Assembly: GCA_004295085.1 (NCBI GenBank)
Contig: SHNF01000007.1
Coordinates: 1 to 64,000, forward strand
Reading direction: 5' to 3'
DNA: 64,000 nucleotides
Source of the DNA: Planctomycetota bacterium
GTDB taxonomy: Bacteria; Planctomycetota; UBA1135
In this document: positions 26,693 through 27,882 of the stretch, in pieces
Numbering within the stretch: the stretch's first letter is position 1
How the letters are laid out: each line of letters begins with the position of its first letter
Program-made: the position numbers and the translations under genes
Notes under the pieces: model-generated
The model's database searches: none
Told to the model about the DNA's origin: nothing
The model's input: only the letters and a program-made list of their open reading frames with translations

Positions 26693-27328
26693 GTGGACCG
26701 CTACGTCACCATCGATCCGGACGCGCTGCGGCCGTCGCAGAAGTACGCGTGGATGATCGCGGTGGTGGTGCCGCGGCCCATCGGCTGGGTCACGACGCGC
26801 TCCCCGGGCGGCGTCGTGAACCTGGCGCCGTTTTCCTTCTTCAACGGCGTCACCAGCCACCCGCCGATCGTGAGCCTGGGGATCGGACGGCGCCGCGACG
26901 GCACGCGCAAGGACACGGCGCGCAACATCCTCGACACCGGCGAATTCGTGGCGCACCTGGTGGAGCACGAGCACCTGGAGGCGATGGTCGCGTCCTCGGC
27001 CGAGCTCCCGCCCGAGGCCAGCGAGCCGGAGCAGCTGGGACTGGAGCTGGTGTCCAGCGAGCGCGTCGGCGTTCCGGCGCTGGCGGCGGCGCGCGTGCGC
27101 CTGGAATGCCGCCTGGAGCGCCACATCGAGATCGGCGATGGGCCGTCGGACTTCATCCTGGGGCGCGTGCTCGCCTTCCGCGTCCGCTCCGACCTGCTGG
27201 CCCCCGACGGCTCGCTGGACCAGGCGCGGCTGGCGCCCATGGGACGCCTCGGGGGCGCCCTGTACGCACCGGTGGAGCGGCGCGTCGAGGTCGCGCGCCC
27301 CGGCCTCCCCAGGCGGCTGGAGCCCTGA
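26693..27328 (+). CDS. Flavin-reductase-family FMN-binding split-barrel protein
   Basis: 211-residue protein of the flavin reductase / DIM6-NTAB family. PRPIGWVTTRSPGGVVNLAPFSFFN is the FMN-binding block of the family (residues 28-52 region), and NILDTGEFVAHLV follows. Members reduce or bind FMN, or act as oxygenase partners. The start is GTG at 26693, six bases after the HExxH gene. The next gene begins two bases after its stop, suggesting a redox pair with the AhpD-like protein. Confidence 0.85.
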   Translation: MDRYVTIDPDALRPSQKYAWMIAVVVPRPIGWVTTRSPGGVVNLAPFSFFNGVTSHPPIVSLGIGRRRDGTRKDTARNILDTGEFVAHLVEHEHLEAMVASSAELPPEASEPEQLGLELVSSERVGVPALAAARVRLECRLERHIEIGDGPSDFILGRVLAFRVRSDLLAPDGSLDQARLAPMGRLGGALYAPVERRVEVARPGLPRRLEP

Positions 27329-27330
27329 GC

Positions 27331-27882
27331 ATGGCGTACATCCGCCCGGTCCCGGAATCCGAGGCGCAGGGCCTGCTGCGCCGGATCTACGCCGAGGCCG
27401 TGGCCCGCGCCGGACGCGTGTGGAACATCGTGCGCCTGCAGAGCCGCAACCCGGAGCAGCTGCGGGCCTCGCTGCAGCTCTACGCGGCCACCATGCTGGC
27501 GCACAGCGCGCTGCCCCGGCGCATGCGCGAGACGCTGGCGGTGGTGGTGAGCCGGGCCAACCACTGCCACTATTGAGTGGCGGCCCACGCCCACGACCTC
27601 CGTGCCGAGGCCGGCGAGCGCGAGCTGGCGGACCACCTGGAACGCCACGGCTGGGAGGATGCGCCCTTGAGCGCGGCGGAGCGCGCGCTGTGCGCGTACT
27701 CCGACAAGCTCACGCTCACGCCGGCGGCGTGCGGCGCCGCCGACATCGAGGGCTTGCGCGCCGCCGGGTGGTCGGAGCGCGAGATCAACGACGCCGTGCA
27801 GATCATCGCCTACTTCAACTACATCAACCGCGTGGCCGACGGCCTGGGCGTGGACCTCGAGGGCTGGATGCCCCGCGCGTGA
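27331..27882 (+). CDS. AhpD-like/CMD-family peroxidase-related protein, probable selenoprotein (TGA at residue 82)
   Basis: Read through one TGA (27574-27576), this is a 183-residue protein of the carboxymuconolactone decarboxylase/AhpD superfamily, the usual length of the peroxidase-related subgroup. The redox motif of the family is E......N.C.YC...H; here it reads RETLAVVVSRANHCHY, then TGA, then VAAHAHDL, so the TGA sits exactly at the second Cys of CxxC. The sequence stays in frame and family-like on both sides (ends in IIAYFNYINRVADGLG). This strongly suggests selenocysteine (CxxU); AhpD-like selenoproteins are known. Alternatives: a Cys-to-stop mutation or sequencing error (TGC/TGT to TGA). 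The Sec machinery is not in the window. Confidence 0.8.
27577..27613 (+). promoter_or_regulatory. Candidate bacterial SECIS hairpin
   Basis: Directly after the TGA, CGGCC (27581-27585) can pair with GGCCG (27609-27613) and CACG (27592-27595) with CGTG (27601-27604), leaving a small apical loop ACCTC, or GACCTCC if the last pair opens, which would put a G first in the loop about 18 bases after the TGA. Position and size fit bacterial SECIS elements; the pairing was found by eye only. Confidence 0.45.

What the first reader, a model, noticed from the sequence alone, without database searches (positions are those of the whole stretch)
27331..27882. Probable selenoprotein: AhpD-like peroxidase with TGA at the CxxC cysteine
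Seen: the CMD/AhpD family frame continues through one TGA that replaces exactly the second Cys of the CxxC redox motif (C-H-Y-U), with family features on both sides and a possible SECIS hairpin just after. Known: AhpD-like selenoproteins exist. Inference: it encodes selenocysteine. A two-part annotation as truncated gene plus fragment would miss it.
Basis: partly seen in the sequence, partly recalled or inferred. Interest (0 to 1): 0.78.

Follow-up and report, generated by a model that had tools for sequence, protein, structure and literature searches.

The report
Selenium-containing AhpD-like peroxidase gene
This bacterial gene encodes a small antioxidant-type enzyme in which one of the two active-site cysteines is replaced by the selenium amino acid selenocysteine, read from an internal UGA codon; it is a real and well-supported new member of a selenoprotein family that has been known since 2005.

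Summary
Window 27331-27882 (+) is one AhpD-like gene (NCBIfam TIGR01926, 147 bits) with a single in-frame TGA at 27574-27576, exactly at the second position of the CxxC motif (C79-H-Y-U82). In 111 aligned homologues that codon is TGA in 96, Cys in 11 and Ser in 4; the TGA form occurs in Planctomycetota, Chloroflexi and Actinomarina records and in dozens of genera of the window's own order. The genome has the whole selenocysteine system: selA, selD (itself a UGA gene) and tRNA-Sec(UCA) side by side, plus SelB. A hairpin at 27594-27613 is conserved with compensatory changes (41 double-changed cells against 12 in shuffles), and its loop fixes an Arg codon to CGU/CGG in 74 of 74 relatives, never CGC, the commonest Arg codon in the same genes. 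Sec at residue 82 is close to certain by comparative evidence; protein-level proof is lacking. The enzyme is probably a peroxide or disulfide reductase with selenium at the residue equivalent to M. tuberculosis AhpD Cys133; substrate and reductant are unknown. It is not new in kind: 'AhpD-like, TIGR01926, CxxU' is a listed selenoprotein family.

The parts
27331..27882 (+). AhpD-like (peroxidase-related, TIGR01926) selenoprotein gene; coding 27331-27879, terminal stop TGA 27880-27882
   Evidence: AlphaFold2 model pLDDT 97.2, closest solved structure 6k40 (D. radiodurans AhpD), TM 0.89
27574..27576 (+). In-frame UGA read as selenocysteine (Sec82)
   Evidence: TGA in 96 of 111 homologues at this column, otherwise Cys (11) or Ser (4)
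27565..27576 (+). CxxU redox motif C79-H80-Y81-U82; with E67 and H86 it completes the five-residue proton relay described for AhpD
   Evidence: E67, C79, Y81, U82, H86 invariant in 75 of 75 orthologues; relay residues from PMC3141380
27594..27613 (+). Bacterial SECIS hairpin: stem 27594-27600 with 27607-27613 (one A.C mismatch in this genome), loop 27601-27606 CGUGCC; 24 nt between UGA and loop
   Evidence: 91.5% of cells paired, 41 double-changed cells vs 11.9 in shuffles, 0/500 shuffles reach it; apical stem in the MFE fold of 65/75 orthologues vs 13.9/75 with synonymous codons redrawn
27601..27603 (+). SECIS loop start = Arg codon CGU, supplying the loop G followed by U (or G in relatives)
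   Evidence: CGT 61 + CGG 13 of 74 Arg codons here, CGC 0; elsewhere in the same genes CGC 54%, CGT 9%
26693..27328 (+). Upstream flavin reductase-like gene (PF01613), ending 2 nt before the AhpD start; probably co-transcribed here, but the pairing is not generally conserved
   Evidence: found next to the gene in only one relative, L043

Best explanation
The gene encodes a selenocysteine-containing AhpD-like enzyme. When the ribosome reaches UGA82, SelB carrying Sec-tRNA(UCA) is recruited by the hairpin 18-37 nt downstream and inserts Sec instead of terminating. The product is an all-helical AhpD/CMD-fold protein whose Cys79/Sec82 pair, with Glu67, Tyr81 and His86, forms the AhpD proton-relay active site. 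Sec82, in the place of M. tuberculosis AhpD Cys133, most likely acts as the fast-reacting residue towards a peroxide or a disulfide of a partner peroxidase, and Cys79 closes a selenenylsulfide that is then reduced by a cellular thiol or flavin system. Shown here by comparative evidence: Sec at residue 82, SECIS, full Sec machinery, family and fold. Inferred: that the protein is made, the substrate, the electron donor and the order of the chemistry.
For: TGA conserved at the same column in 96/111 homologues, otherwise Cys or Ser; also phylum-wide, with nearly all listed matches holding one TGA. Sec machinery in the window's genome: selA C6:259183-260535, selD C6:260701-261621 with its own in-frame TGA (SCAGUAAK), tRNA-Sec C6:261729-261821 with anticodon TCA, SelB C5:371872-373743. 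Across phyla, 9 of 9 tested genomes with the TGA form have selA, against 5 of 11 with a Cys or Ser form. SECIS hairpin: compensatory changes and synonymous-codon constraint, and the loop G followed by U/G as in the bSECIS model. UGA is still a stop: the neighbouring flavin reductase gene and this gene itself end in TGA. Fold and relay residues.
Against: The window's own hairpin carries an A.C mismatch and scores only -5.4 kcal/mol alone, weaker than the -7.5 of the published model. The stretch 9-44 nt after the UGA folds to -11.0 with the apical stem, but longer stretches of this one sequence prefer another fold with no excess stability (z about +0.4). A few genomes with the TGA form miss one machinery gene (for instance selA in G015), which may be assembly gaps. 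There are no protein data. The role as a peroxidase rests on family only.
Confidence: 0.95

Rival explanations
1. The TGA is a sequencing or assembly error, or a nonsense mutation in a decaying gene.
For: A single unusual codon in an unfinished genome would by default be suspected.
Against: The same codon is TGA in 96 of 111 homologues from many genera and several phyla, the downstream half stays conserved to the C-terminus, and no other stops accumulate in it.
Confidence: 0.01
2. UGA is read as another amino acid in this organism (a code change, for example to Trp) or by a suppressor tRNA, not as Sec.
For: An in-frame UGA alone does not name the residue.
Against: UGA ends neighbouring genes (26684, 27326, 27880); ARAGORN finds a Sec tRNA with anticodon TCA in the Sec cluster; the aligned residue in homologues is Cys or Ser and never Trp; a SECIS hairpin is conserved.
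Confidence: 0.01
3. UGA82 is a true stop: two polypeptides (an 81-aa N-terminal piece and a reinitiated C-terminal piece starting at GTG 27577) assemble into a split enzyme.
For: A GTG codon directly follows the TGA in this genome.
Against: The GTG is not conserved: the following codon is ACG, ATC, CTG, ACC and others in relatives; the break would fall at the active site, in helix 80-94 of a high-confidence model; it would not explain the hairpin or the Arg codon constraint.
Confidence: 0.01
4. It is a selenoprotein, but the chemistry is not peroxide or disulfide reduction; for instance reductive dehalogenation or another redox step, as known for some CMD-fold enzymes.
For: The fold search also finds the debrominase Bmp8 (TM 0.73-0.78), so the CMD fold with active-site Cys supports other reactions; the substrate sites of AhpD-like proteins are unknown (PMC3141380).
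Against: Closest by sequence and fold are peroxidase-related AhpD proteins (6k40, 2oyo, 2pfx), and the full AhpD proton relay is invariant.
Confidence: 0.15

Closest known systems
AhpD-like selenoprotein family (COG2128 / TIGR01926, CxxU; Sargasso Sea 2005; example MCB9421940.1 in the 2022 and 2026 reviews)
   Same: Same protein family model (TIGR01926), same CxxU motif, bacterial SECIS just downstream
   Different: Only in details: organism, and the loop form C-G-U/G tied to an Arg codon; nothing that sets it outside the family. The example accession itself was not compared.
AhpD_rel_CFYUT (NF041238) and the CMD-like selenoprotein (PF02627, CxxU)
   Same: Related CMD-fold CxxU selenoproteins
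   Different: NF041238 matches with only 54.7 bits (cut-off 175) over the C-terminal part of a 357-position model, so it is not that family
Deinococcus radiodurans AhpD-like 6K40 and D. geothermalis 2OYO (Cys forms)
   Same: Same fold (TM 0.89) and CxxC-centred active site, 36-38% identity
   Different: Cys instead of Sec at the second motif position
Mycobacterium tuberculosis AhpD (Cys130/Cys133)
   Same: CxxC active site and Glu-Cys-His-Cys-His proton relay, as described in PMC3141380
   Different: Distant sequence and different chain topology; Sec replaces the equivalent of Cys133 here

Membership tests
Bacterial selenoprotein | In-frame UGA aligned with Cys or UGA in homologues | tested here: met
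   96 TGA, 11 Cys, 4 Ser at the column
Bacterial selenoprotein | selA, selB, selC and selD in the genome | tested here: met
Bacterial selenoprotein | SECIS: 3-9 nt apical loop, 4-16 bp upper stem, G in the first two loop positions, 16-37 nt from UGA | tested here: met
   loop 6 nt CGUGCC, G second, 24 nt spacing, 4 bp upper stem plus 2 bp below one mismatch; conserved and covarying; model from PMC13188914
Bacterial selenoprotein | SECIS minimum free energy at or below -7.5 kcal/mol | tested here: inconclusive
   -5.4 for the 20-nt hairpin of this genome, -11.0 for the stretch 9-44 nt after the UGA; bSECISearch itself was not available
Bacterial selenoprotein | Sec present in the protein | not testable with these tools
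   needs mass spectrometry or 75Se labelling
AhpD-like selenoprotein family TIGR01926 | Score above the curated family cut-off | tested here: met
   147.4 bits vs 81.8
AhpD-like selenoprotein family TIGR01926 | CxxU motif | tested here: met
   C79-H-Y-U82; review lists TIGR01926 as CxxU
AhpD_rel_CFYUT NF041238 | Score above the curated family cut-off | tested here: not met
   54.7 bits vs 175
AhpD proton-relay peroxidase | Glu, Cys, Tyr/His, Cys (here Sec), His relay residues | tested here: met
   E67, C79, Y81, U82, H86 in 75/75 orthologues
AhpD proton-relay peroxidase | Peroxidase or AhpC-reducing activity | not testable with these tools
   no assay possible

The most novel reading that the evidence does not exclude
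In this phylum (probably Planctomycetota) the selenocysteine form is the dominant form of the AhpD-like enzyme, and it has taken on a redox reaction other than peroxide removal that needs selenium, which would explain why Cys replacements are rare there.
Probability: 0.1. Interest if true: 0.45.

Novelty: new member of a known kind. Interest (0 to 1): 0.27.

Why it matters
Standard annotation would split this gene into two false fragments, and the same would happen in about a third of the sampled genomes of this phylum (99 of 294 carry a homologue, nearly all with the TGA). It gives a well-sampled SECIS alignment in which RNA and protein constraints on the same bases can be told apart, and shows that the Sec form is the rule rather than the exception in this lineage.

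Tried and rejected
Folding the window's own sequence as evidence for SECIS: not significant. Rfam search of the region: nothing relevant. Operon with flavin reductase as a functional clue: pairing not conserved. Plasmid collection: only distant homologues under 60% identity, none closer. Presence or absence of Sec machinery inside the order does not discriminate, because nearly all genomes have it; the cross-phylum comparison was used instead. Sequencing error, code change and split-gene readings were considered and rejected (see rivals).

Full report
Observation. The frame 27331-27882 (+) encodes 183 residues with one internal TGA at 27574-27576, residue 82, in the motif C79-H-Y-U82. A mechanical ORF list breaks the gene at that codon. 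Both halves belong to one family: the read-through protein matches NCBIfam TIGR01926 'peroxidase-related enzyme' at 147.4 bits (cut-off 81.8) over residues 3-174 and Pfam CMD. In the whole window only three TGA codons have coding-like sequence of 40 codons on both sides in frame; two look like the ends of genes followed in frame by the next gene, and the third is this one.

Comparative evidence. Of 101 genomes searched (the window's own plus 100 of its family and order), 74 carry the gene, and almost every listed match has one in-frame TGA. I aligned 111 homologues from this set and from named public genomes: the codon at residue 82 is TGA in 96, TGC/TGT in 11 and a Ser codon in 4, and never any other residue. 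The TGA form occurs in records named Phycisphaerae, Planctomycetaceae, Chloroflexi/Anaerolineae and Actinomarina. A sample of 294 genomes across the phylum gave 99 with a homologue, nearly all with the TGA.

Machinery. The window's genome (G000) holds selA (C6:259183-260535), selD (C6:260701-261621) and a tRNA-Sec (C6:261729-261821, 71 bits, anticodon TCA by ARAGORN) within 3 kb, and SelB on C5. selD itself has an in-frame TGA (SCAGUAAK). UGA remains a stop codon: the preceding flavin reductase gene ends in TGA at 27326-27328 and this gene at 27880-27882. Among 20 genomes reached through the named loci, all nine with the TGA form have selA, against five of eleven with Cys or Ser.

SECIS. Seventy-five orthologous 48-nt stretches beginning at the TGA align without gaps. 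A seven-pair stem (alignment columns 21-27 with 34-40; window 27594-27600 with 27607-27613) around a six-base loop keeps 91.5% of pairs, has changes on both sides in five of seven pairs, and 41 double-changed cells against 11.9 expected; none of 500 shuffles reaches it and the slid controls fall far below. For example GAC-CTC...GAG-GTC changes to GAT-CTC...GAG-ATC, a silent Asp change matched by a Val-to-Ile change. The loop begins with an Arg codon that is CGT (61) or CGG (13) in all 74 relatives with Arg there and never CGC, although CGC makes up 54% of Arg codons elsewhere in the same genes; the Leu codon is CTC in 72 of 75 and the Glu codon GAG in 70 of 71. With the amino acids fixed and codons drawn from the background, the apical stem appears in 14 of 75 sequences on average (maximum 22 in 100 trials), against 65 of 75 observed. 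The sequences are related, so binomial probabilities from that call are not used as proof. Loop size, the loop G followed by U or G, and the 24-nt spacing match the bacterial SECIS model quoted in PMC13188914. The Cys and Ser homologues do not show this hairpin.

Weak point of the SECIS. In this genome the stem has an A.C mismatch: the hairpin alone is -5.4 kcal/mol, but the stretch from 9 to 44 nt after the UGA folds to -11.0 with the apical stem at 95-97%. Longer stretches of this one sequence prefer other folds and are no more stable than shuffles. It is an inference that the excluded bases next to the UGA are covered by the ribosome at the moment of decoding.

Function. The AlphaFold2 model (with Cys in place of Sec; pLDDT 97.2, pTM 0.92) is closest to solved AhpD-like proteins: 6k40 (TM 0.89), 2oyo, 2pfx, 3c1l, 2prr. 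The five residues of the AhpD proton relay described in PMC3141380 correspond to E67, C79, Y81, U82 and H86, and all five are invariant in 75 orthologues. By that homology Sec82 sits at the place of M. tuberculosis AhpD Cys133. A peroxide- or disulfide-reducing role is the best guess; the CMD fold also supports other chemistry (the debrominase Bmp8), so the substrate remains open.

What is known. AhpD-like selenoproteins with CxxU were reported from the Sargasso Sea (27 sequences; PMC1088965), were among the commonest families in the GOS data (299 'AhpD-like 1' and 70 'AhpD-like 2'; PMC2398784), and the 2026 review lists 'AhpD-like protein, TIGR01926, CxxU, MCB9421940.1' (PMC13188914). The present gene passes the sequence-based membership tests for that family. 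It is a new member of a known kind. What the present data add is the lineage-wide dominance of the Sec form and codon-level evidence for the SECIS.

Taxon. The window's IF-2 is as close to that of 'Planctomycetota bacterium KatS3mg102' (56%, 609 bits) as to members of its own order (568-621 bits), and farther from the other named genomes tested. Planctomycetota is therefore likely but not established.

Noticed in passing
L125-L130, L132-L136, L140, L141: A second, paralogous AhpD-like clade (C-x-Y-U followed by HH and often RRGLRRLL; about 35-41% identical) also has TGA at the same place, with a different downstream sequence; several genomes carry both.
   Followed up: partly
L145, 5702-6622 (G000:C6:260701-261621): selD of this genome itself contains an in-frame TGA (SCAGUAAK), and selA, selD and tRNA-Sec are adjacent.
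   Followed up: yes
window 27577-27579: A GTG directly after the UGA makes the C-terminal half look like a separate ORF; it is not conserved in relatives.
   Followed up: yes
L029, L030, L031, L036: A distant group of homologues has Ser at the Sec position while keeping the first Cys, the Tyr and the His, suggesting one-Cys or altered variants.
   Followed up: no
window 27376-27858 (P0001 residues 16-176): Weak but above-threshold Pfam match to sestrin (PF04636, 30.9 bits against 29.4) and a fold match to human Sestrin2 (TM about 0.7), in keeping with a relation of sestrins to AhpD.
   Followed up: no
window 26693-27328: A flavin reductase-like gene ends 2 nt before the selenoprotein gene; it lies next to it in only one relative examined (L043).
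   Followed up: partly
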